Assembly: GCF_900141885.1 (NCBI RefSeq)
Contig: NZ_FQYY01000001.1
Location: 248,001-312,000 of the forward strand
DNA length: 64,000 nt
Reading direction: 5' to 3'
Source of the DNA: Mesonia phycicola
GTDB taxonomy: Bacteria; Bacteroidota; Bacteroidia; Flavobacteriales; Flavobacteriaceae
The notes beneath the pieces are model-generated. The model did no database searches. It saw only the letters and a program-made list of their open reading frames with translations, and was not told the DNA's origin. The position numbers and the translations under genes were made by a program. This document shows positions 1-50,563 of this stretch, one piece after another (position 1 is the first letter of the stretch; each line of letters begins with the position of its first letter).

Positions 1-366
1 AATGGTTATTATTTAGAACCAACGATTATTGAAGTTCAGTCGAATCGTTGTCAACTAAATCAAGAAGAAATATTTGGTCCGGTCGTTACAATTTTACCAT
101 TTAAAACAGAAGAGCAAGCGCTAGAAATGGCAAACGACGTTCGCTACGGACTTTCGGCTACGGTTTGGACGAGCAATTTAGATCGAGCTATGCGATTAAG
201 TAACACTTTAGAAGCAGGTATTATTTGGGTAAACACTTGGTTAAATCGCGATTTACGTACACCATTCGGCGGGACGAAAGACAGTGGCGTTGGTCGCGAA
301 GGAGGCTTTGAAGCTTTGCGCTTTTTTACCGAACCTAAAAATGTGTGTATTCAGTATAAAAATTGA
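1..366 (+). CDS. Aldehyde dehydrogenase, C-terminal part (probable 2-aminomuconate semialdehyde dehydrogenase)
   Basis: Only the last 121 codons are in the window. The frame is open from base 1, so the ATG at 127 is internal and the true start lies upstream. The fragment shows the aldehyde dehydrogenase C-terminal half: the EEIFGPVV segment that follows the catalytic domain, then NRDLRTPFGG and SGVGREGG near the end. The NRDLRTPFGG form resembles NAD-dependent 2-aminomuconate semialdehyde dehydrogenases (ALDH8-like). That enzyme acts right after ACMSD in 3-hydroxyanthranilate degradation, and an ACMSD gene lies 1.1 kb downstream on the same strand. The catalytic Cys and Glu are outside the window. 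The family is certain; the substrate is inferred from motif and context. Confidence 0.85.
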   Translation, partial: NGYYLEPTIIEVQSNRCQLNQEEIFGPVVTILPFKTEEQALEMANDVRYGLSATVWTSNLDRAMRLSNTLEAGIIWVNTWLNRDLRTPFGGTKDSGVGREGGFEALRFFTEPKNVCIQYKN

Positions 367-40826: not shown

Positions 40827-41519
40827 ATGAAGAGAATAGTTTTAATTTTAGTCTTACTTTTTGGGTATCAACAAACACAAGCTCAACTTTTTACTAAAGA
40901 AAAAATAAGAAACCTTGAAAACTTTGATAAAGCTAGATTATCGTGGGGTTACTATTTAGGGTTTAACTCTTATGACTTTAAATTTGATTACAAAGACCAT
41001 CCGTCTGAAGATGTTTTGGTAGATAAAAGTATGGGATTTAATGTTGGGCTAGTTGGTAATTTACGTATTAACGATTACTTTGATATAAGATTAGAGCCAG
41101 GTGTTGTTTTTGCCAGCAGAAATTTAACTTACCCAGAACTTACAGAAGATAATTTTAGAGAAGTTAAATCTACTTATGTTCACATCCCGCTATTATTAAA
41201 ATTTTCTACTAAAAGAATAAATAATTTTAAGCCGTTTATTGTAGGAGGGGTATCTACTTCTTTCAATTTATCTAGTAACCAAGATAACCCAGATGATAAT
41301 AGCTCTGGTGAATTTAGAATGATGAAAAACACCTACTATTATGAAGTAGGTTTTGGTATAGATTTATACCTAATGTTCTTTAAATTTACACCATCTATTA
41401 GAGGCGTATTTGCGCTAAATGACGAGCTTAAAAGAGATGTCGATCCAAATAGCGCATATACAGGTAATATAGATAAAATGTCTACAAGAGGTATATTTAT
41501 CAACTTTACATTTCAATAA
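40827..41519 (+). CDS. porT: Type IX secretion system protein PorT, outer membrane beta-barrel
   Basis: This 230-residue protein has a signal peptide ending near QTQAQ and an eight-strand beta-barrel of the PorT/OMP_b-brl_2 type, with LSWGYYLGFNSYDF at the start, RLEPGVVFASRNL, YVHIPLLLKFSTKR and PFIVGGVSTSFNL, ending in the aromatic terminal residue FTFQ expected for barrel assembly. PorT is required for T9SS secretion and maturation. It is co-transcribed with ubiE/menG and overlaps convergent argH by 14 bases. Confidence 0.9.
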   Translation: MKRIVLILVLLFGYQQTQAQLFTKEKIRNLENFDKARLSWGYYLGFNSYDFKFDYKDHPSEDVLVDKSMGFNVGLVGNLRINDYFDIRLEPGVVFASRNLTYPELTEDNFREVKSTYVHIPLLLKFSTKRINNFKPFIVGGVSTSFNLSSNQDNPDDNSSGEFRMMKNTYYYEVGFGIDLYLMFFKFTPSIRGVFALNDELKRDVDPNSAYTGNIDKMSTRGIFINFTFQ

Positions 41520-42792
41520 TATTTTTAAATTTTGTTTTAATCTCTTCTAAACAAAGATTACCAAGGCTACCTTCGTGCGTGTGATTAACAGCTCTATCTC
41601 CTGTAAAATCACCATCCATAATTTGCTTACCTACTTCTCGGTAAGCATCTCTAAACGAAGAACCATTCATTACTAATTTATTTACTTCTTCTACACTGTA
41701 GAGATAGTCATACTTACTATCTTCTACTATAGAGGTGTTTACTTCTATATGCTGTAACATAAAATTAGTTACCTCTAAATTATCTTTCATCAGCTCGATA
41801 CCTTCCATAAAATTTTCTTTTAACAACTGAAAATCTCTATGATAACCACTAGGCAAATTATTTGTAATCATCATTATTTCTGATGGTAATTGCTGTATTT
41901 TATTAGATTTTGCTCTAATTAGCTCAAAAACATCCGGATTTTTCTTGTGAGGCATAATACTAGATCCCGTAGTTAATTCCTTCGGAAAACTAATGAAGTT
42001 GAAGTTTTGATTGATATACAAACATACATCTGAAGCAAATTTAGCTAAGGTTCCAGATACTGATGCTAAAGCAAAAGCTACGGTCTTTTCTAGCTTACCT
42101 CTGCTCATTTGTGCAGCTGTAACATTATATTTTAAGGTATTAAAACCTAATAACTCTGTAGTCATTTTTCTATCTATAGGAAAAGAGCTACCATAACCTG
42201 CTGCAGAACCTAACGGATTTTGATCTGCAATTTTGTATGCAGCATTCAGCATAATTACATCATCTATCAAACTTTCTGCATAACCAGAAAACCACAACCC
42301 AAATGAAGAGGGCATTGCTACTTGTAAGTGCGTATACCCTGGAATAATAATTTCTTTATGCTTTTCTGCTAACTCTAATAAAGTATTAAATAATTGCTGA
42401 GTAAGTTTCTTTATTTCTGTAATTTGATCTTTAGCGTACAAATGTAAATCTACCAAGACTTGATCGTTTCTAGATCTTGCAGTGTGTATTTTTTTACCCG
42501 TATCGCCTAATTTCTCTACTAAAATATGCTCTACTTTACTGTGTACATCTTCAAATTCTTCTTCTATAGTAAAGGTACCTTCATCTATTGTTTTTTCAAT
42601 TTCATCTAGAGCTATTAATAAATTTTTTAATTCTTCTTCAGATAATATTTCTATTTTTTGAAGCATTTTAGCGTGTGCTTTACTCCCCAAAACATCATAT
42701 TTTGCTAATTGAAGATCTAACACTCTATCTTTACCTACGGTAAATTTATCTACTATATTATTTACGGTATATCCCTTATCCCAAAGTTTCAT
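41506..42792 (-). CDS. argH: Argininosuccinate lyase
   Basis: This 428-residue enzyme cleaves argininosuccinate to arginine and fumarate. The signature GSSIMPHKKNPDVFELIRAK is at about residues 270-290, with the HTARSRNDQV block earlier. It is the last gene of the arginine operon, 43 bases after argE, and its 3' end overlaps porT by 14 bases. It is a little shorter than the usual 455-465 residues. Confidence 0.96.
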   Translation of the reverse strand: MKLWDKGYTVNNIVDKFTVGKDRVLDLQLAKYDVLGSKAHAKMLQKIEILSEEELKNLLIALDEIEKTIDEGTFTIEEEFEDVHSKVEHILVEKLGDTGKKIHTARSRNDQVLVDLHLYAKDQITEIKKLTQQLFNTLLELAEKHKEIIIPGYTHLQVAMPSSFGLWFSGYAESLIDDVIMLNAAYKIADQNPLGSAAGYGSSFPIDRKMTTELLGFNTLKYNVTAAQMSRGKLEKTVAFALASVSGTLAKFASDVCLYINQNFNFISFPKELTTGSSIMPHKKNPDVFELIRAKSNKIQQLPSEIMMITNNLPSGYHRDFQLLKENFMEGIELMKDNLEVTNFMLQHIEVNTSIVEDSKYDYLYSVEEVNKLVMNGSSFRDAYREVGKQIMDGDFTGDRAVNHTHEGSLGNLCLEEIKTKFKNIIEM

Positions 42793-42835
42793 CTTACTAT
42801 TTTTAAGTGTGTTGGTTTGTTTATTTTAATAAATT

Positions 42836-43900
42836 CTAATAAAGTATTTTAGAAAATAATTCAACATAAAGCTGAATTCCTTCTTTTACTTCATCTACAT
42901 AAATATACTCATCTGCACTATGAGAGCGAGTAGAATCTCCTGGCCCCAATTTTAAAGAAGGGCAACTTAATACTGCTTGATCTGATAGTGTAGGCGAACC
43001 ATAGGTTTCTCTACCTAACTCAACTCCTGCTATAACAATAGGATGATCTAACGGAATTGATGAAGAATTTAACCTAAATGAACGTGCCTTCAATTCAGAT
43101 TTGGTGTTTTCTTGCAAAAACTTAAAAATCTCCTTATTGCTATATTTATCTGTTATTCTAACATCTATTACAAAATGACAAGTTGCTGGCACTACATTGT
43201 GTTGCTCTCCTGCATTTATCTGCGTAACATTCATTTTTACTTTTCCTAAAGTTTTAGAGACTTTAGAAAACTCATAGTTTTTAATCCATAAAATATCTTC
43301 CAACGCGTTATAAATGGCATTATCTGTATTCTCGTGTGCCGCGTGTCCTGCAATACCTGGTGCATAACCATCTATTACCAGTAAACCTTTTTCTGCTACT
43401 GCCAATTGCATTTGCGTAGGTTCACCAACGACAGCAAAATCTATTGCTGGTAATTCTGCCAACAAACTATTTAAACCGTTGGAACCAGAACTTTCTTCTT
43501 CTGCAGTAGCAGCAATTACTATATTGTATTTTAAATTTTCTTGTTCATAATAATAAACAAATAAACTTAACAGAGAAACCAAACAACCACCAGCATCATT
43601 ACTGCCTAAACCAAACAACTTACCATCTTTAATTTCTGCTTCAAATGGATTATTTGTATATGCTTTATTTGGTTTTACCGTATCGTGATGCGAGTTTAAT
43701 AAAACCGTTGGCTTTTGCTCGTCAAAATATTTATTGGTTGCCCAAATATTATTTTTAGTTCTATTAGTTTCAATATTAAATTGATGTAACCACGCTTCTA
43801 TTAATAATGCAGTTTTATCTTCTTCTCCAGAAAAAGATGGTGTTTCTATAAGTTGTTGTAACAGATGTAATGCTTTTTCTTGAAGTTTTTCTATACTCAT
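42836..43900 (-). CDS. argE: M20-family N-acylornithine deacylase (ArgE-type)
   Basis: This 354-residue zinc hydrolase has the M20 motifs NSHHDTVKP, FGLGSNDAGGCLVSL, ATAEEESSGSNGL (catalytic Glu pair) and HSADEYI. In arginine synthesis it removes the N-acyl group after carbamoylation, giving citrulline. Its location between argB and argH supports ArgE function. Whether it hydrolyses acetyl- or succinyl-citrulline depends on the pathway version (see argF). Confidence 0.9.
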   Translation of the reverse strand: MSIEKLQEKALHLLQQLIETPSFSGEEDKTALLIEAWLHQFNIETNRTKNNIWATNKYFDEQKPTVLLNSHHDTVKPNKAYTNNPFEAEIKDGKLFGLGSNDAGGCLVSLLSLFVYYYEQENLKYNIVIAATAEEESSGSNGLNSLLAELPAIDFAVVGEPTQMQLAVAEKGLLVIDGYAPGIAGHAAHENTDNAIYNALEDILWIKNYEFSKVSKTLGKVKMNVTQINAGEQHNVVPATCHFVIDVRITDKYSNKEIFKFLQENTKSELKARSFRLNSSSIPLDHPIVIAGVELGRETYGSPTLSDQAVLSCPSLKLGPGDSTRSHSADEYIYVDEVKEGIQLYVELFSKILY

Positions 43901-43903
43901 AAC

Positions 43904-44683
43904 TTATAAACTTAACTGGGTGAATAATGTTGAATTTGATTGAAGCAATTTTGAACTACCAATTACCACATTTGCTACTCCGTTTTTTAAAGCATAAAAA
44001 CAATTTTGCATTTTAGGTAACATACCTTGGTGAATTTGCTGATTAGCTTTTAACGCTTCATATTTTGCAGTATTTATTTTCGGAATTACCGAATTTTCGT
44101 CTTCTACATTTTCTAACACACCATTCTTTTCAAAACAATACATTAATTCTACCTCATAATATTTACTCATAGCAATGGCAATCTCTGCAGTAACTGTATC
44201 TGCATTTGTATTGAGTAACTGCCCCTTACCATCGTGACTAATAGCGCAAAAAACAGGAGTAAGTTGAGCTGTAAGTAATTGCTGAATTATTGCTGAATTA
44301 ATATGATTTACATCTCCTACAAAACCATAATCTACAGGTTCTTTATGCCTTAAATTTGCTTGAACACAATTAGCATCTGCTCCAGACAGACCTAAAGCAT
44401 TACAATTATTAGCTTGTAATTGAGCAACTATATTCTTATTAAGTAAACCTGCATACACCATTGTAATTACTTCTAAATCTTCTGCAGAGGTTATTCTTCT
44501 GCCTTCTACAAGTTTGCTCTCAATTCCTAATTTTTTGCTAGTTGCCGTCGCAATTTTGCCGCCACCGTGAATTAGTATTTTTGGTTCTTTTATTGCTGAA
44601 AAATCTTTTAATAGTGTTGCTAAAACTTCAGCATCATCTATTAAATTTCCTCCAATTTTTACAATTTTCAGTTTAGTTTTCAT
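43904..44683 (-). CDS. argB: N-acylglutamate kinase (ArgB)
   Basis: This 259-residue amino acid kinase phosphorylates N-acetyl- or N-succinyl-glutamate. It starts KIVKIGGNLID and has LIHGGGKIATATSKKLGI, AGLLNKNIVAQL, LGLSGADANCVQ and LNTNADTVTAEIA. It lies three bases before argE, and its start overlaps the argF' stop by 11 bases. Confidence 0.95.
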   Translation of the reverse strand: MKTKLKIVKIGGNLIDDAEVLATLLKDFSAIKEPKILIHGGGKIATATSKKLGIESKLVEGRRITSAEDLEVITMVYAGLLNKNIVAQLQANNCNALGLSGADANCVQANLRHKEPVDYGFVGDVNHINSAIIQQLLTAQLTPVFCAISHDGKGQLLNTNADTVTAEIAIAMSKYYEVELMYCFEKNGVLENVEDENSVIPKINTAKYEALKANQQIHQGMLPKMQNCFYALKNGVANVVIGSSKLLQSNSTLFTQLSL

Positions 44684-45623
44684 AATCCAATAATTTTAAA
44701 AGTACCGTTTGTGCAGAAAAAGTTCTGTTATTAGCCTGCTCAATAACTAAAGAAGCATCACTATCTAACACCTCATCACTAACCACTACGTTTCTTCTTA
44801 CTGGCAAACAATGCATAAATTTTGCTTGTTGTGTTAGTTTCATTTTCTTAGAAGTAATAGTCCAATCTGTTAACTCTGGAGCAGATTTACCATAATTTTG
44901 ATAAGAAGACCAGTTTTTAGCATATACAAAATCTGCATCTTTTAAAGCTTCATCTTGGTTATGAATAACCTTTGCACTTCCTGCAAACTCTTTAGATAAA
45001 TCAAAGCCTTCTGGATTTGCAATTACAAAATCATAATCGGTAGCATTTATCCACTGCGCAAAAGAGTTGGGTACCGCTTGCGGTAAAGGTTTTGGGTGCG
45101 GTGCCCAACTTAATACCACTTTGGGTTTTGCTATTTTTTTATGCTCTTCTATAGTTAAAACATCTGCTAGAGATTGTAGCGGATGTAAAGTGGCGCTTTC
45201 TAAAGATATTACAGGAACCAAAGCGTGCTTTATAAACTTACTCAAAAAAGCCTCTGCATAATCGTCTTCTTTATTTGTCAACGAAGCAAAAGTTCTTACC
45301 CCAATCACATCACAATATTGAGAAATTACAGCAGCTGCTTCTTTAATATGCTCTTGTTTCCCTTGGTTCATTACCGCACCATCTTCCATTTCTAACACCC
45401 AACCATCTTTATCTACATTCATCACCATTACTTGCATGCCTAAATTAAAAGCTGCTTTTTGACTGCTTAAACGGGTACGCAAACTCGGATTGAAAAACAA
45501 TAAACCTAATGTCTTATTTTCTGTATGTTTTTTAAAACCAAACGGATTTTTCTTCACCTCAGCAGCTAGCTGAACAAGTGCATCTAAACTATCAACATTG
45601 TTTAAACTAATAAAATTTTTCAT
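44673..45623 (-). CDS. argF': N-acylornithine carbamoyltransferase (ArgF')
   Basis: This 316-residue transcarbamylase is of the acetyl/succinyl-ornithine type, not the standard ArgF. It has the carbamoyl-phosphate motif NPSLRTRLSS, GWVLEMEDGAVMNQGKQEHI, LVPVISLESATLHPLQSLAD and MHCLPVRRNVV. In Bacteroides fragilis the corresponding enzyme is specific for N-succinylornithine and carries Pro90; the Xanthomonas acetylornithine enzyme has Glu92 at that position. Here residue 90 is Gln, so the acyl specificity cannot be assigned. It overlaps argD by four bases. Confidence 0.93.
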   Translation of the reverse strand: MKNFISLNNVDSLDALVQLAAEVKKNPFGFKKHTENKTLGLLFFNPSLRTRLSSQKAAFNLGMQVMVMNVDKDGWVLEMEDGAVMNQGKQEHIKEAAAVISQYCDVIGVRTFASLTNKEDDYAEAFLSKFIKHALVPVISLESATLHPLQSLADVLTIEEHKKIAKPKVVLSWAPHPKPLPQAVPNSFAQWINATDYDFVIANPEGFDLSKEFAGSAKVIHNQDEALKDADFVYAKNWSSYQNYGKSAPELTDWTITSKKMKLTQQAKFMHCLPVRRNVVVSDEVLDSDASLVIEQANNRTFSAQTVLLKLLDYEN

Positions 45624-46750
45624 GATAATAAGCTTTTTAAAGCATTGGTAAATTGTAGAATTTCTTTTTGCTGAATAGTTAACGGCGGAAGAATTCTTAA
45701 TAAATTAGGATTTGCTGAAGCTCCTGTAAAAATGTTATGTTCTTCCAGTAATTGAATTCTTAACTCTTTAATAGGAAAATCAAACTCTACCCCTAACATT
45801 AAACCTTTACCTTTCACTTGCTTTACTTGCGGGATTTTAGCAAATTCTTCTTTTGCAAAAGCACCTATAGCAATTGCGTTTTCTAAAAGATTTTCTTTTT
45901 CTATTACCTCTAAAACAGCCAAACCTGCTGCGCAAGCCAGATGATTACCACCAAATGTGGTCCCTAACATACCAAATTGAGCTTTAATTTTTGGATGAAT
46001 TAATACGCCAGCCACAGGAAAACCATTTCCCATACCTTTTGCCATTGTAACAAGATCTGCTTCTATATTAGCATATTGATGTGCAAAAAACTTTCCGCTT
46101 CTACCATAACCGCTTTGTATTTCATCTAAAATCAATAATGCCTGATGCTTTTCACATGTTTGCTTTAAAAATTTCAGAAAATCTTCTGTAGGCATATCTA
46201 AACCTCCTACTCCTTGAATTCCCTCTACAATTACGGCGGCAACATCATCGTTTTTAAAAGCAGATAACACCGCTTCTTCATTATTTAAAGACAAAAATTC
46301 TACTGGAAAATTATCTACATTTAACGGAGCAGATAATTTTGCATTATCGGTTACATTTAAACTTGCAGCAGTTCTTCCGTGAAAACTATTTTTAAAAGCT
46401 ATTATTTTTTTCTTCCCAGTAAAAAAAGAAGCTATTTTTAAAGCATTCTCATTAGCTTCTGCCCCACTATTACAAAAGAAAAGTTCGTGATTTTGATAAC
46501 CGCTTAATTGCTGAATTTTCTTTGCTAATTCTTCTTGCAATGGCATTTGAATAGAATTAGAGTAAAAACCAATTTTGGCTACCTGTTGCTGTATTTTTTC
46601 TACATAATGCGGATGCGAATGACCTATAGATATTACCCCGTGACCACCATATAAGTCTAAATATTTTTGCTCATTTTCATCAAAAACATAAGCTCCTTCT
46701 GCGTGAGTTGGCGTGATAGCAAACCTTGGATATACGTTGAATAAACTCAT
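45620..46750 (-). CDS. argD: N-acylornithine aminotransferase (ArgD)
   Basis: This 376-residue class III PLP aminotransferase converts N-acylglutamate semialdehyde and glutamate to N-acylornithine. It has FCNSGAEANENALKIA, KNSFHGRTAASL, LDEIQSGYGRSGKFFA and the PLP Lys in MAKGMGNGFPVAGVL. The length and operon position fit ArgD. It is one base downstream of argC. Confidence 0.95.
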   Translation of the reverse strand: MSLFNVYPRFAITPTHAEGAYVFDENEQKYLDLYGGHGVISIGHSHPHYVEKIQQQVAKIGFYSNSIQMPLQEELAKKIQQLSGYQNHELFFCNSGAEANENALKIASFFTGKKKIIAFKNSFHGRTAASLNVTDNAKLSAPLNVDNFPVEFLSLNNEEAVLSAFKNDDVAAVIVEGIQGVGGLDMPTEDFLKFLKQTCEKHQALLILDEIQSGYGRSGKFFAHQYANIEADLVTMAKGMGNGFPVAGVLIHPKIKAQFGMLGTTFGGNHLACAAGLAVLEVIEKENLLENAIAIGAFAKEEFAKIPQVKQVKGKGLMLGVEFDFPIKELRIQLLEEHNIFTGASANPNLLRILPPLTIQQKEILQFTNALKSLLS

Positions 46751-46751
46751 T

Positions 46752-47726
46752 TTAAAAATAATTTGCTTTTAGTTGAAGTCCCGCATTCTCTGGAAAATCA
46801 AATAATAAATTCATATTTTGTATGGCTTGGCCAGCCGCTCCTTTTAATAAATTATCTATTACAGAAGTAATTAAAACCTTGCCATCTATTTTTTGTACCT
46901 GAATAAATGCCATATTGGTATTTACTACTTGTTTTAGATTAATAGTTTCTTCTGTTACGTGTACAAACTCACTATCTTGATAATAGGTTTTATAATGCTG
47001 AAATAATTCTTCTTGACTTAAAGAAGATTTCGTGTAAACTGAAGCAAAAATTCCTCTAGTAAAATCTCCTCTTAGCGGTAAAAAATTTATTTCTTCAGAA
47101 AAACCTGATTGTAAATCTTTTAACGTCTCCCCAATTTCATCTAAATGTTGGTGCTGAAAAGCTTTATAAATAGATACATTTTGATTTCTCCAACTAAAGT
47201 GTGAGGTTTCAGTTAATTTTTGTCCTGCACCTGTAGAACCTGTTAATGCATGAATATGAAGCTCATCTTTTAATAATTCATTTTTAGCCAATGGTAATAA
47301 TGCAAGCTGAATTGCAGTAGCGAAACAACCTGGATTAGCAATATGTTTGGCTTGCTTTATCTTTTCTTTATTAGCTTCAACTAAACCATATACAAATTCT
47401 TTTTCTTGAAAAACTGCATCTTTATTCAATCTAAAATCGTTACTTAAATCGATAATTTTTGTAGTTTTTGCAAAAGAATATTTTTCTAAAAACTTTTTAG
47501 AATTTCCGTGACCTAGACACAAAAACAATACATCTACCTCTGCATTTACTTGATCTGTAAATTGTAAATCTAAATAACCTAAATCTTGGTGAATAGAGCC
47601 TACCAATTCTCCTGGTTGAGAATGGCTATATAAAAAATCTACCTCTACTTTTGGGTGATGCTGTAAACATCTTATTAACTCTCCTGCTACGTAACCCGTA
47701 CTACCTACAATACCTACCTTAATCAT
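46752..47726 (-). CDS. argC: N-acylglutamyl-phosphate reductase (ArgC)
   Basis: This 324-residue NADPH enzyme reduces the acyl phosphate to the semialdehyde. It has GIVGSTGYVAGELIR, the catalytic Cys in NPGCFATAIQLAL, and the HxxEI region as HQHLDEI. It belongs to the type 1 ArgC length class. The start overlaps the argG stop by eight bases. Confidence 0.96.
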   Translation of the reverse strand: MIKVGIVGSTGYVAGELIRCLQHHPKVEVDFLYSHSQPGELVGSIHQDLGYLDLQFTDQVNAEVDVLFLCLGHGNSKKFLEKYSFAKTTKIIDLSNDFRLNKDAVFQEKEFVYGLVEANKEKIKQAKHIANPGCFATAIQLALLPLAKNELLKDELHIHALTGSTGAGQKLTETSHFSWRNQNVSIYKAFQHQHLDEIGETLKDLQSGFSEEINFLPLRGDFTRGIFASVYTKSSLSQEELFQHYKTYYQDSEFVHVTEETINLKQVVNTNMAFIQVQKIDGKVLITSVIDNLLKGAAGQAIQNMNLLFDFPENAGLQLKANYF

Positions 47727-48915
47727 TTTTCTTGTTTACGTGGTTATAAATTTGCATAGAATTGGCTAAAATTTTGGTAAAGCCTTTTACATCGTCTCCA
47801 GACCAATTTTTATTCATTTCTCCATATTCTCCAAAATCAGATGTCATTAAATCATGCTTAGACTCTATACCTTGAATCACAAATCTGTAAGGATGCAGTT
47901 CTATAAAAACTGTACCGCTTACATTCTGCTGAGTTTCTTCTAGAAAAGTTTCTATATTTCTCATTACAGGCTCAAAATATTGCGACTCGTGTATAAACAT
48001 ACCATACCAATTACCTAATTGTTCTTTCCAATGTTGTTGCCATTTAGAAAGTGTATGTTTCTCTAAATGATGATGTGCTTTAATAATTAAGGTAGAAGCT
48101 GCGGCCTCAAAGCCAACTCTTCCTTTTATACCTATAATGGTATCTCCCACATGAATATCTCTACCAATAGCATATTTACTTGCTATCGCTTCTATTTGTT
48201 GTATACACGCAACTGGAGTTAGTTCTTTTCCGTTTAGACCAACTGGTTCTCCATTTTTAAATTCAATAGAAATAGTTTTAGATTCTTTTTCTTGCAACGG
48301 ACTAGGGTAAGCTTCTTCTGGTAACGGCTGATGAGAAGTTAAAGTTTCTGCACCGCCAACACTAGTACCCCACAAACCTTTGTTGATGGAATACTGAGCC
48401 TTTTTCCAATCAATTTCATAACCGTGTTTTGCCAAATAGTCTATCTCATCTTTTCTAGAAAGTTGTAAATCTCTAATAGGTGTAATAATTTCTATTTCTG
48501 GTACAATTAATTGAAAAATTAAATCGAACCTAATTTGATCGTTTCCTGCTCCCGTACTACCGTGAGCAATGTAGCTTGCTCCTGTTTTTTTTGCGTATTC
48601 TGCTAAAGCTATGGCTTGATAAATACGCTCTGCACTTACAGAAAGCGGATAAGTATTATTTTTTAGCACATTACCAAAAATTAAATACTTGATAATGTTA
48701 TTGTAATACGCATTGGTTTGCTCTAGAGTTGTGTGTTGCTTTACCCCTAAAACATATGCTTTCTCTTCTATTTCTTGTAATTCTTCTGCTGAAAAACCTC
48801 CTGTGTTTACAATTGCAGAATGAACTTCTAAATTTTTCTCGTGAGTTAAATATTTTACACAATAGGAAGTATCAAGGCCTCCGCTAAAGGCTAGTACTAC
48901 TTTATTATTTTTCAT
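47719..48915 (-). CDS. argG: Argininosuccinate synthase
   Basis: This 398-residue ATP-dependent ligase joins citrulline and aspartate. The P-loop-like motif AFSGGLDTSYCVKYL is at the N terminus, followed by YIAHGSTGAGNDQIRFD and KGLWGTSVGG. Length is typical. It is the second gene of the operon, following the GNAT gene by five bases. Confidence 0.96.
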   Translation of the reverse strand: MKNNKVVLAFSGGLDTSYCVKYLTHEKNLEVHSAIVNTGGFSAEELQEIEEKAYVLGVKQHTTLEQTNAYYNNIIKYLIFGNVLKNNTYPLSVSAERIYQAIALAEYAKKTGASYIAHGSTGAGNDQIRFDLIFQLIVPEIEIITPIRDLQLSRKDEIDYLAKHGYEIDWKKAQYSINKGLWGTSVGGAETLTSHQPLPEEAYPSPLQEKESKTISIEFKNGEPVGLNGKELTPVACIQQIEAIASKYAIGRDIHVGDTIIGIKGRVGFEAAASTLIIKAHHHLEKHTLSKWQQHWKEQLGNWYGMFIHESQYFEPVMRNIETFLEETQQNVSGTVFIELHPYRFVIQGIESKHDLMTSDFGEYGEMNKNWSGDDVKGFTKILANSMQIYNHVNKKND

Positions 48916-48920
48916 TTTAG

Positions 48921-49577
48921 TTATTTTTTTTGATGGTTAAAGTGAAATAAATTTGCTTTTTTCTGAAGTCTCAACTTTCTTTCTTGCATAAAAGTTTTAA
49001 AACTATCCCAAGCTCTTTTTTTATTGATTTCTGTTTGTGCTTGAGAAATTTTACTTAAATCGCACACCATGCCTGTACACAAACACATTTTACGCTCTGT
49101 ACGTTGTAAAATATCGTGATTACGGCAACTTTGGCAACCTTTCCAGAAAGTTTCATCTTGAGTAAGTTCAGAAAAAGTAACTGGTCTATACCCTAAGTCT
49201 GAATTAATCTTCATGACAGCCATACTAGTGGTTATACCAAATAGTTTAGCATTAGGATATTTTTGTTTAGATAAATCAAAAATTGCTTTTTTGATAGCTC
49301 TAGCAAGTCCAGAATTTCTAAAATCTGGATGTACAATAAGACCAGAGTTGGCTACGTACTTCTCTCCTTCCCAGTTTTCTATATAACAAAAACCAATTAC
49401 TTTTTCATTTTGAAAAGCAATAACAGCCTTACCTTCGGCCATTTTTTTTTGTATGTATTCTGGTGCTCTTTTTGCTATACCTGTACCTCTAATTTTGGCA
49501 GCTTCTTCCATCATAGTACAGATGGTTTCAGCCCAAGAATAATGGCTAGCATTTGCCACACATAGTGTAAACTCCAT
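48921..49577 (-). CDS. GNAT-family acyltransferase, candidate N-acylglutamate synthase, with Cys-rich segment
   Basis: This 218-residue protein has a GNAT core: GFCYIENWEGEKYVANSGLIV and HPDFRNSGLARAIKKAIFDL with the acetyl-CoA loop. A cysteine cluster FWKGCQSCRNHDILQRTE and CLCTGMVCD follows at about 163-190 and could bind zinc or iron-sulfur. It is the first gene of the arginine operon, which has no argA, argJ or argO. The simplest inference is that it makes N-acetyl- or N-succinyl-glutamate from glutamate. The C-terminal charged tail (about 195-218) is of unknown function. Activity is not proven by sequence. Confidence 0.8.
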   Translation of the reverse strand: MEFTLCVANASHYSWAETICTMMEEAAKIRGTGIAKRAPEYIQKKMAEGKAVIAFQNEKVIGFCYIENWEGEKYVANSGLIVHPDFRNSGLARAIKKAIFDLSKQKYPNAKLFGITTSMAVMKINSDLGYRPVTFSELTQDETFWKGCQSCRNHDILQRTERKMCLCTGMVCDLSKISQAQTEINKKRAWDSFKTFMQERKLRLQKKANLFHFNHQKK

Positions 49578-49635
49578 ATAAAATCGAGTTTTAAAATTAA
49601 AAAAAATTGAATTGTATCGTCCTGAGAATAATGCA

Positions 49636-49684
49636 GAGGTACGTAACCTCGCTAAAAAAATATTACGCCCTTAGGCGGGGACGT
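49636..49684 (-). promoter_or_regulatory. Attenuator-like alternative hairpins before the arginine operon
   Basis: On the minus strand, ACGTCCC within the leader ORF can pair with GGGCGT (span 49665-49684, one bulged T) and is followed by AATATTTTTTT, the form of a terminator. A second hairpin GAGGT/ACCTC lies at 49636-49650. A third, mutually exclusive stem could join ACGTCCCCGC (49675-49684) to GCGAGGTTACGT (49641-49652). This pattern is what attenuation needs; which state means antitermination is not decided. Confidence 0.55.
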
Positions 49685-49785
49685 CGTAAGCGGATTTCTG
49701 TAAGACTAAAAAGCACAGCAGTAGCTTCAGAAGAAGAAATTTCTTTTGAAGTTAAATAGAAGTTATGTACGTTTTGATCTTTCAT
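49663..49785 (-). CDS. Candidate arginine leader peptide (40 residues)
   Basis: This ORF is too short for standard gene calling. It begins ATG at 49785, ends TAA at 49663, and translates to MKDQNVHNFYLTSKEISSSE, a 10-residue link and IRLRRPRLRA. Arginines are at 32, 34, 35, 37 and 39, coded CGC, CGA, CGT, CGC and AGG, whereas AGA predominates in genes around it. The stop is 85 bases before the first arginine operon gene, with no other gene between. The last codons lie inside the terminator-like hairpin. A stalled ribosome at scarce arginyl-tRNA would change hairpin choice. I infer an attenuation leader; no homolog search was possible. Confidence 0.7.
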   Translation of the reverse strand: MKDQNVHNFYLTSKEISSSEATAVLFSLTEIRLRRPRLRA

Positions 49786-49793
49786 TATAAAAA

Positions 49794-49801
49794 CAAATAT
49801 A
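49794..49801 (-). promoter_or_regulatory. -7 promoter element for the arginine leader and operon
   Basis: The minus strand reads TATATTTG, an exact TAnnTTTG match, ending nine bases before the leader ATG. The transcript would have almost no 5' leader before the peptide start, so it is nearly leaderless. Confidence 0.5.
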
Positions 49802-49840: not shown

Positions 49841-50563
49841 TTATCTACGTTTAAATTCACTTAAAAGTACAGCAGTAGCTGTTGCTACGTTTAGACTTTC
49901 TGTATTTTTATTTTCACCAAATTGTGGTATAGATATTTTAGAGGTTGCTAAACGCTCTATTTGAGGCGAAATACCATTAGCTTCATTACCTAAAACTAAT
50001 ATTCCTTTTGAAGAGATTTCACTTTCATAAATATTTTCGCCATTCATAAACGTGCCATAAACAGGCATTTTTAATTTAGAAATCTCGTCTGTTAAATTTC
50101 CATATACAACTTCTACTCTAGATATTGACCCCATGGTTGCTTGTATTACTTTAGGGTTGTAACAATCTACTGTATCTTCAGAACATAAAAGTTGCTTTAC
50201 ACCAAACCAATCACAAAGTCTAATAATAGTACCTAAATTACCAGGATCTCTAACGCCATCTAAAGCCACTATAAAATCTTCTGTGATTTTTGATGGTTCT
50301 TGAGGGATTTCAAACAAAGCTAAAGCAGTTTGAGAGTTGGTTAGTTTTGTAATTTTTTTTAACTCATTAGGCTCTAATAGCTGAATTTTATTTTTATCAG
50401 TAAAAAAAATATCTGCTTCAGAAAATAAACGTTCTAATTTAAAGTTAGAATTTAAAAGCTCTTTAATCACTTTAATCCCTTCTGCTACAAACAAAGCATT
50501 TTTTTGTCTATATTTTTTTTGAGATAGGCTGTTTATTAACTTTATTTGGCCTTTGCTAAGCAT
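49841..50563 (-). CDS. SpoU/TrmH-family RNA 2'-O-methyltransferase
   Basis: This 240-residue SPOUT methyltransferase has an N-terminal substrate-binding domain (KKYRQKNALFVAEGIKVIKELL) and the knot motifs VALDGVRDPGNLGTIIRLCDWFG, LVLGNEANGISPQI and TESLNVATATAVLL. The target nucleotide (tRNA or 23S rRNA) cannot be assigned. It is divergent from tamL with a shared 35-bp promoter region. Confidence 0.9.
   Translation of the reverse strand: MLSKGQIKLINSLSQKKYRQKNALFVAEGIKVIKELLNSNFKLERLFSEADIFFTDKNKIQLLEPNELKKITKLTNSQTALALFEIPQEPSKITEDFIVALDGVRDPGNLGTIIRLCDWFGVKQLLCSEDTVDCYNPKVIQATMGSISRVEVVYGNLTDEISKLKMPVYGTFMNGENIYESEISSKGILVLGNEANGISPQIERLATSKISIPQFGENKNTESLNVATATAVLLSEFKRR

What the first reader, a model, noticed from the sequence alone, without database searches (positions are those of the whole stretch)
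49663..49785. Probable arginine leader peptide ahead of the arginine biosynthesis operon
A 40-codon ORF too short for usual calling sits on the minus strand directly before the operon. It ends IRLRRPRLRA with five Arg in the last nine codons, using CGC, CGA, CGT, CGC and AGG, whereas genes nearby mainly use AGA. It has a -7 box nine bases upstream, and its last codons lie in a hairpin followed by a T-run. Amino-acid-rich leaders that control their own synthesis operon are well established in enterobacteria; I know of no described arginine leader of this type in Bacteroidota.
Basis: partly seen in the sequence, partly recalled or inferred. Interest (0 to 1): 0.88.

Follow-up and report, generated by a model that had tools for sequence, protein, structure and literature searches.

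The report
Arginine-sensing leader before arginine genes
A tiny arginine-rich gene and two RNA hairpins sit in front of the arginine-making genes in most of the related bacteria sampled that carry them, and probably switch those genes on when arginine runs out.

Summary
In detail: a 40-codon ORF (49785..49663, minus) ends IRLRRPRLRA, with five Arg in its last nine codons, a TATATTTG box 8 nt upstream, and Arg codons inside a hairpin followed by T7. It stands 85 nt before an eight-gene arginine operon. The usual form ends CGY-CGC-CCG-TAA, with the stop codon in the loop of hairpin 1. A second hairpin, 22-27 nt after the stop in 92 measured loci, covaries strongly, matches no Rfam 15 family in the loci tested, and was found almost only before arg operons. 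The window's copy is diverged. Up to a third of the genomes have two leaders in tandem. ArgR was absent from all 20 family genomes tested. Best reading: ribosome-mediated attenuation in which a ribosome stalled at Arg codons sits directly on the terminator; a new variant of a known kind. Hairpin 2's role is unknown. Nothing is shown experimentally.

The parts
49794..49801 (-). TATATTTG, Bacteroidota-type -7 promoter box (TAnnTTTG; consensus recalled), 8 nt before the leader ATG
   Evidence: Sequence; in 27 of 116 loci examined a TAnn(n)TTTG box lies 4-8 nt before a leader ATG, 7 nt in 20 of them (denominator)
49663..49785 (-). Leader ORF, 40 codons, MKDQNVHNFYLTSKEISSSEATAVLFSLTEIRLRRPRLRA*; Arg codons 32, 34, 35, 37, 39
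   Evidence: conserved Arg-rich leader in 124 of 130 same-family genomes
49725..49751 (-). Hairpin inside the leader ORF (CUUCA..UGAAG), possible pause hairpin
   Evidence: Fold of 49700-49785 z -2.06; over 27 leaders the mean z is only -0.65, 7 of 27 under -1.5, so weak
49665..49684 (-). Hairpin 1: ACGUCC/GGGCGU, terminator-like stem holding Arg codons 34 (last base), 35, 37, 39
   Evidence: Terminator scan; fold; same place as the conserved CGCCC-GUAA-GGGUG hairpin of relatives
49654..49660 (-). T7 tract after hairpin 1
   Evidence: Sequence, terminator scan
49633..49652 (-). Hairpin 2 (diverged copy): GC-GAGGU-UACGU-ACCUC-(U)-GC
   Evidence: Fold z -2.30; R1 model match only 11.3 bits, E 0.4, but the best in the window; nearest relative L002 matches at 21 bits
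48921..49577 (-). First operon gene: GNAT acetyltransferase (acetylglutamate synthase role inferred)
   Evidence: Pfam PF00583; no NCBIfam equivalog; role inferred from position
47719..48915 (-). argG, argininosuccinate synthase
   Evidence: TIGR00032 above cut-off
46752..47726 (-). argC
   Evidence: TIGR01850 above cut-off
45620..46750 (-). argD-like transaminase
   Evidence: TIGR00707 best match, below its cut-off
44673..45623 (-). N-acetylornithine carbamoyltransferase
   Evidence: NF003384 above cut-off
43904..44683 (-). argB
   Evidence: TIGR00761 above cut-off
42836..43900 (-). M20 deacylase (argE role inferred)
   Evidence: PF01546, TIGR01910 below cut-off
41506..42792 (-). argH
   Evidence: TIGR00838 above cut-off

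Best explanation
It is an arginine-specific, ribosome-mediated transcription attenuator. Transcription starts a few bases before the leader ATG, and a ribosome follows the polymerase into the leader. With arginine plentiful, the ribosome finishes and releases at the stop codon in or beside hairpin 1, hairpin 1 folds, and polymerase terminates at the U-rich tract. With Arg-tRNA short, the ribosome stalls on the clustered Arg codons (CGY in most relatives; CGC, CGA, CGT and AGG here) that form part of hairpin 1, covers it, and polymerase reads through into the eight arginine genes. Hairpin 2 is an arg-specific accessory element in register with the leader stop codon rather than with the gene start; its task is unknown, my best guess being a brake or pause that keeps ribosome and polymerase in step. 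Shown here: anatomy, conservation, covariation of hairpin 2, specificity. Inferred: the start of transcription, translation of the leader, termination at hairpin 1, the response to arginine, the direct-occlusion step, and any role of hairpin 2.
For: Arg-rich leader in 124 of 130 operon-bearing genomes, versus 12 on the reverse strand and 8.2 on average in shuffles. 93% of 469 Arg codons in leader ends are CGT/CGC against 27% of 862 in the downstream gene. In 96 leaders picked by a pattern that fixes the last codon as Pro and limits codon -2, codon -3 is Arg in 90, as CGT 70, CGC 19, CGA 1. Promoter box 4-8 nt before an ATG in 27 of 116 loci. Hairpin 2: 99.0% of cells paired and 6 of 8 pairs with two-sided changes on 38 chosen rows; 0 of 500 shuffles reach the whole-structure values (relatedness can do this in part, but sliding the partners drops pairing to 20.6-59.7%). 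Stop-to-hairpin-2 spacing 22-27 nt, sd 1.1, in 92 pattern-picked loci, against sd 11.1 for hairpin-2-to-gene in the same loci. Model R1: best hit beside the first arg gene in 37 of the 39 family genomes, of 60 searched, that have the gene, and no hit in the 21 without it (compared; 7 of the 37 were training rows). Exact module pattern in genome contigs: 116 of 119 stretches lie under 400 nt upstream of the gene, one more before a variant arg operon, two cut too short to tell. No ArgR in 20 genomes while 9 of 14 control genomes ring. Terminator-like hairpin plus T7 in the window.
Against: The U tract after hairpin 1 is weak in relatives: T is 0.30-0.82 at positions 3-14 after GGG in 105 loci (background 0.35) but no clean run. 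Hairpin 1 is nearly invariant, so covariation says little for it, and its outermost pair is unpaired in 14 of 38 rows. No convincing conserved antiterminator helix in 25 aligned single-leader sequences. The leader interior is not clearly folded (mean z -0.65 over 27). The window's own hairpin 2 is diverged and R1 does not find it significantly, nor in its whole genome. 89 of 116 loci lack the box before a leader ATG by the strict pattern. Six of 130 genomes have no ORF by the criterion (two of these, L108 and L116, also lack the hairpin 2 pattern). No expression data.
Confidence: 0.82

Rival explanations
1. Arrest peptide: the nascent ...RRRP chain senses free arginine (or a pathway intermediate) in the ribosome tunnel, rather than tRNA charging.
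For: RRP-stop is the commonest C-terminus; in the 96 pattern-picked leaders codon -2 is always Arg although the pattern also allowed Pro. Leaders with Arg codons near polyamine genes respond to pathway metabolites (orf34/speF, PMC6386406, abstract read).
Against: The rest of the peptide varies widely between genera; the Pro and last Arg codons are also constrained by hairpin 1; some lineages end RRPLGV, RRLVRV or RPRLRA instead of RRP.
Confidence: 0.1
2. Control at the level of translation or mRNA stability: the leader and hairpin 2 govern translation or decay of the first gene rather than transcription.
For: Hairpin 1 has a weak U tract in relatives; arginine-codon leaders acting on RNA decay or translation are published (orf34, PMC6386406, abstract; rbfL of S. 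aureus, PMC13009471, passages read).
Against: Hairpin 2 keeps its distance to the leader stop (sd 1.1) and not to the gene start (sd 11.1); the window copy has a T7 tract.
Confidence: 0.15
3. Hairpin 2 is the real regulator (a protein- or ligand-binding site), the Arg-rich ORF being secondary.
For: Hairpin 2 is the best-supported structure, with a near-invariant GG-UGNGU-CC core and a bulge, and is arg-specific in the genomes searched.
Against: Arg-rich ORFs persist where hairpin 2 is diverged (the window, L002); synonymous drift in the Arg codons points to selection on codons.
Confidence: 0.08
4. Chance ORF over the terminator of the upstream SpoU-family (rlmB-like) gene.
For: That gene ends 55 nt before the leader ATG and a hairpin with T7 follows.
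Against: Conservation in 124 of 130 genomes and a promoter-like box between that gene and the leader, also found in 26 other loci. Whether the upstream gene differs among genomes was not examined systematically.
Confidence: 0.01

Closest known systems
Enterobacterial trp/his/leu-type leader-peptide attenuators (recalled; general model in PMC1183508, abstract start seen in a search listing only)
   Same: Short ORF rich in the operon's own amino acid, upstream of the cognate operon, with a terminator-like hairpin
   Different: Control codons and usually the stop lie inside the terminator-like stem; no convincing conserved antiterminator helix; start codon a few bases from the promoter box; an extra conserved hairpin 2; tandem leaders in up to a third of the genomes
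hisG leader of the same family (own genome MRDLNLHHHHFHIHAQAR; PMC9723704, section 19, names 5' elements before hisG and pheA and, in general terms, leader-peptide clues before amino-acid operons)
   Same: Same family, same logic, same genome
   Different: In L308 the His leader precedes a separate terminator with a T6 run, and a stretch complementary to it lies in the leader (read by eye); the Arg leader overlaps its terminator
orf34/speFL of Salmonella (PMC6386406, abstract; the name speFL is recalled)
   Same: Arg codons in a leader ORF sense arginine
   Different: Controls ornithine decarboxylase through Rho and RNase G, not an arginine biosynthesis operon
rbfL of S. aureus (PMC13009471, passages)
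   Same: Arg codons in a leader sense arginine limitation
   Different: Represses translation of a biofilm regulator by covering its ribosome-binding site
E. coli pyrBI attenuator (recalled)
   Same: Leader ORF overlaps the terminator, so the ribosome itself blocks it
   Different: Senses UTP through polymerase pausing, not an amino acid
Tandem attenuators of Salmonella mgtCBR (PMC3641672, abstract)
   Same: Two leader ORFs in one leader RNA
   Different: The two sense different signals (ATP, proline); here both are Arg-rich or end in Arg-Arg-Pro

Membership tests
Ribosome-mediated amino-acid attenuators (trp/his type) | Short ORF with clustered codons of the regulated amino acid | tested here: met
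   Conservation and synonymous codon drift; translation itself not measured
Ribosome-mediated amino-acid attenuators (trp/his type) | Located in the 5' leader of the cognate biosynthesis operon | tested here: met
   arg genes identified; module before the arg operon in 117 of 119 pattern hits, 2 undetermined because the stretch is cut; the transcript itself not mapped
Ribosome-mediated amino-acid attenuators (trp/his type) | Intrinsic terminator after or over the control codons | tested here: inconclusive
   Terminator-like in the window (T7); U tract weak in relatives
Ribosome-mediated amino-acid attenuators (trp/his type) | Mutually exclusive antiterminator helix | tested here: inconclusive
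   None convincing in 25 aligned sequences, power limited
Ribosome-mediated amino-acid attenuators (trp/his type) | Read-through rises when the amino acid is scarce | not testable with these tools
   Needs expression data
Any Rfam 15 family | Covariance-model match | tested here: not met
   At E up to 1 only one chance-level match each, far below the gathering score, in the window leader and in six relatives
ArgR-controlled arg operons | ArgR repressor present | tested here: not met
   0 of 20 family genomes, own included; 9 of 14 control genomes ring
T-box riboswitches | Match to the Rfam T-box model | tested here: not met
   No T-box match at E up to 1

The most novel reading that the evidence does not exclude
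Hairpin 2 (bulged stem with a GG-UGNGU-CC cap) is the receptor of an undescribed, arginine-operon-specific trans-acting factor or an RNA-polymerase signal, so that this leader integrates Arg-tRNA charging with a second input; tandem Arg leaders in many genomes add a second checkpoint. That would be a new regulatory RNA class restricted to this family, in genomes without a recognisable ArgR.
Probability: 0.3. Interest if true: 0.78.

Novelty: new variant of a known kind. Interest (0 to 1): 0.62.

Why it matters
It offers an answer to how arginine synthesis may be controlled in a large bacterial family in which no ArgR was found in the genomes tested. It gives a leader attenuator with an unusual layout: Arg codons and stop inside the terminator-like hairpin, a start codon almost at the promoter box, and a second hairpin at a locked distance. 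It also yields a compact, arg-specific structured RNA that matched no Rfam family and is testable by simple reporters.

Tried and rejected
Rfam search of the window leader and six relatives: only chance-level matches. NCBIfam search of the leader peptide: no match at E up to 1. ArgR: absent in the own genome and in 20 family genomes. Idea that hairpin 2 is a general part of flavobacterial leaders: not supported. Model R2 over 41 genomes gave 24 hits, 21 at the arg operon and three elsewhere (E 0.006, 0.02, 0.4); 27 of the 41 have the first arg gene, so 6 were missed (G000, G002, G003, G020, G033, G034) (compared). Module outside the family: weak hits (E 1.8e-4 to 0.008). Eleven loci (L172-L182, one of them, L178, a weak same-family hit) were looked at in three forward frames by eye; I recognised no arginine biosynthesis gene behind them. 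L183 was not looked at. L175 lies before what looks to me like argS, upstream of that gene's own promoter-like box. Idea that hairpin 2 is a Shine-Dalgarno-like site (AGGUGA): set aside by me because GG/CC varies to GA/UC and, in L112, L001 and L002, to GU/AC. Kissing of hairpin 2 with hairpin 1: only considered by eye, not computed. Conserved antiterminator pairing: no convincing support. A clear fold of the leader interior: weak. First RNAalifold run on A1 mixed bulge lengths and gave a poor structure (8 pairs, -2.24 kcal/mol); I then built R1 from 38 of the 117 rows, those mostly with a two-base bulge, so the count is on a chosen subset. Literature: eight searches of the open library listed no arginine-biosynthesis leader peptide in Bacteroidota. 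I saw titles and abstract starts in the listings, passages of PMC7366714 (short ORFs reminiscent of leader peptides in B. thetaiotaomicron), PMC4997734, PMC13009471, PMC2965389 and PMC4833913, section 19 of PMC9723704, and abstracts of PMC6386406 and PMC3641672. Subscription papers, notably a 2010 comparative study of attenuation (Lopatovskaya et al., seen only in a reference list), were not available, and no supplement could be read.

Full report
Observation. The ORF precedes, by 85 nt, an operon whose genes are by family search a GNAT acetyltransferase, argG, argC, an argD-like transaminase, N-acetylornithine carbamoyltransferase, argB, an M20 deacylase and argH. In 15 neighbouring genes AGA makes up 75.5% of 151 Arg codons; the leader uses none. 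Only one other of 1544 short ORFs in the window has as many as 5 Arg in its last 10 codons.

Conservation. A family-wide search found the first operon gene in 130 of 199 genomes, own included. I took the DNA upstream of all 130 (30 loci, 100). Within 330 nt of the gene start, 124 of 130 have an ORF (8-60 codons, ATG/GTG/TTG) with at least 3 Arg in the last 10 codons, 100 have at least 4 and 44 at least 5; the reverse strand gives 12, 5 and 3; 100 dinucleotide shuffles of each give means of 8.2, 0.9 and 0.04. The six that miss are L103, L108, L116, L122, L124 and L130; four of them still have the hairpin 2 motif. Leader ends use CGT for 40% and CGC for 53% of 469 Arg codons, against 18% and 9% of 862 in the downstream gene. 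Among 96 leaders picked by a pattern that fixes the last codon as Pro and limits codon -2, codon -3 (not fixed) is Arg in 90, split CGT 70, CGC 19, CGA 1, and codon -4 is Arg in 48 (CGC 29, CGT 19): synonymous drift as expected of coding sequence. In 27 of 116 loci a TAnn(n)TTTG box lies 4-8 nt before a leader ATG, 7 nt in 20 of them, so in these the leader mRNA is probably nearly leaderless (inference; the place of the start site relative to this box is recalled).

RNA anatomy. The common end of the leader is CGY CGC CCG TAA GGGTG: the last Arg and Pro codons and the stop form hairpin 1, CGCCC-GUAA-GGGUG, with the stop in the loop. A U-rich stretch follows (T 0.30-0.82 at positions 3-14 after GGG in 105 loci, background 0.35). 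Then comes hairpin 2: a stem of about 6 pairs, usually a 5' bulge of 1-4 nt most often ending in A, two pairs (usually GG/CC) and a UGNGU loop, for example GGAAAU-A-GG-UGAGU-CC-AUUUCC. Its core motif is within 300 nt upstream in 117 of 130 loci; of the 13 others, six match model R1 at E under 0.001, L001 (the window), L116 and L121 weakly (E 0.18-0.63), and four not at all. On 38 chosen rows hairpin 2 pairs in 99.0% of cells with two-sided changes at 6 of 8 pairs, and none of 500 shuffles reaches the whole-structure values; hairpin 1 pairs in 88.4% but hardly varies. In 92 pattern-picked loci the distance from stop to hairpin 2 is 22-27 nt (sd 1.1), while the distance on to the gene start has sd 11.1, so hairpin 2 is in register with the leader, not with the gene.

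The window's copy. It is a diverged member: hairpin 1 is ACGUCC...GGGCGU with T7, the ORF runs through it (…RPRLRA), and hairpin 2 is GAGGU-UACGU-ACCUC. Model R1 ranks this place first in the window but only at 11.3 bits, E 0.4, and does not report it in the whole genome. The link is L002 (G033), whose first gene is the nearest in the sample (68% identity), whose leader ends FRRRLLA, whose hairpin 2 is GAUGU-UCCGU-ACAUC (one compensatory change against the window, by eye), and which R1 finds at 21 bits. A same-genus genome, G646, has a canonical hairpin 2 (49.7 bits) and, read by eye, two Arg-rich stretches.

Specificity and spread. R1 hits 37 of 60 family genomes, each best hit beside the first arg gene; 39 of the 60 have that gene, the two misses being the window's genome and G033, and the 21 without it have no hit; one extra weak hit (E 0.006) lies elsewhere in G043 (compared; 7 of the 37 were training rows of R1). 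Hairpin 2 alone (R2) over 41 genomes also points to the arg operon: 21 of 24 hits, from 27 genomes that have the gene. In samples of the order (196 genomes) and phylum (296), which overlap, the same 12 same-family genomes have strong hits (E at most 1.3e-9); the rest are weak, one of them (E 0.01) in genus g127, of which the 16 other genomes listed have none. In genome contigs the exact pattern gave at least 119 stretches (the scan stopped at its limit); the 80 titles shown are genera that I recall as Flavobacteriaceae or unnamed Flavobacteriaceae, Flavobacteriales or Bacteroidetes bins (not looked up). 116 of the 119 lie under 400 nt upstream of the GNAT gene on the same strand, and in these 116 the frame ending at that stop has at least 2 Arg in its last 10 codons (at least 3 in 109). 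L198 precedes an arg operon with a different first gene, then argG- and argC-like ORFs (named by my reading); two stretches are cut too short to tell.

Tandem leaders. In 44 of the 117 loci with the hairpin 2 motif another Arg-rich ORF with an ATG lies upstream, its stop 158-177 nt before hairpin 2 (one 207), for example MKNLKNKIRCTTPGLPVRNRRRF; 14 of the 44 have the strict promoter box 4-6 nt before that ATG, and many others a TAGTTTTAC-like one by eye. At least L030 is probably spurious. In an alignment of 31 of these, the start codon of the second leader falls in one column as ATG (3), GTG (12) or TTG (15), with one exception, L082, and the frame runs on to the Arg-Arg-Pro end in most, which suggests that both leaders are translated.

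Mechanism. Shown: anatomy, conservation, covariation of hairpin 2 and specificity. Inferred: with arginine scarce, ribosomes stall on the clustered Arg codons and sit on hairpin 1, so the terminator cannot form; with arginine plentiful they release and it forms. No convincing conserved antiterminator helix appeared in 25 aligned single-leader sequences, so I favour direct occlusion over the textbook switch, at moderate confidence. No ArgR was found in 20 family genomes, so a leader would be a sensible substitute. By contrast a His-rich ORF lies before 24 of 25 hisG loci examined (own genome MRDLNLHHHHFHIHAQAR, no shuffled control), followed in the own genome by a separate terminator with T6.

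What is known. PMC9723704 (passages and section 19 read) reports clues for leader-peptide attenuation before amino-acid operons in F. psychrophilum and structured 5' elements before hisG and pheA, among others; that section does not name arginine. PMC7366714 (passages) mentions short ORFs reminiscent of leader peptides in B. thetaiotaomicron. Arginine-sensing leaders are known elsewhere: orf34/speF (PMC6386406, abstract) and rbfL (PMC13009471, passages). Tandem attenuators: mgtCBR (PMC3641672, abstract). PMC2965389 (passages) states that its authors knew in 2010 of leader peptide systems only in Proteobacteria and Actinobacteria before their own Firmicutes find. My eight searches (listed in Tried and rejected) showed no arginine-biosynthesis leader in Bacteroidota, within an open-access library only.

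Verdict. Hairpin 2 and the tandem leaders are the novel parts and are mechanistically open.

Noticed in passing
Own genome G000 contig C21 109509-110051 (L308), outside the window: hisG is preceded by a His-rich leader, MRDLNLHHHHFHIHAQAR, and a terminator with T6; 24 of 25 family hisG loci examined have a His-rich short ORF upstream.
   Followed up: partly
window 41506-49785: The first arg gene is present in 2 of 16 genomes of the window's genus, and the window's copy is closer to another genus (68%) than to its congener G646 (57%): possible horizontal gain or differential loss.
   Followed up: no
window 49705-49726 and 49859-49880: A 22-nt direct repeat (91%) is shared by the leader (ATAVLFS) and the end of the upstream SpoU-family gene (ATAVLLS); the leader may have borrowed from the gene tail, or it is coincidence.
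   Followed up: partly
window 225-311 (+): The only other short ORF with at least 5 Arg in its last 10 codons: LGKHLVKSRFTYTIRRDERQWRWSRRRL, TTG start.
   Followed up: no
L175: A weak R1 hit in another family lies just before what looks like argS (my reading), but upstream of that gene's promoter-like box; probably a plain terminator.
   Followed up: partly
L198 4287-4982: Arg operon with the conserved leader module but a different first gene in place of the usual GNAT gene.
   Followed up: no
31 tandem-leader loci, between leader 1 and hairpin 1: A further hairpin, GUUAUU..AAUAAC with apparent compensatory changes, lies inside leader 2 of many tandem-leader genomes (seen by eye).
   Followed up: no
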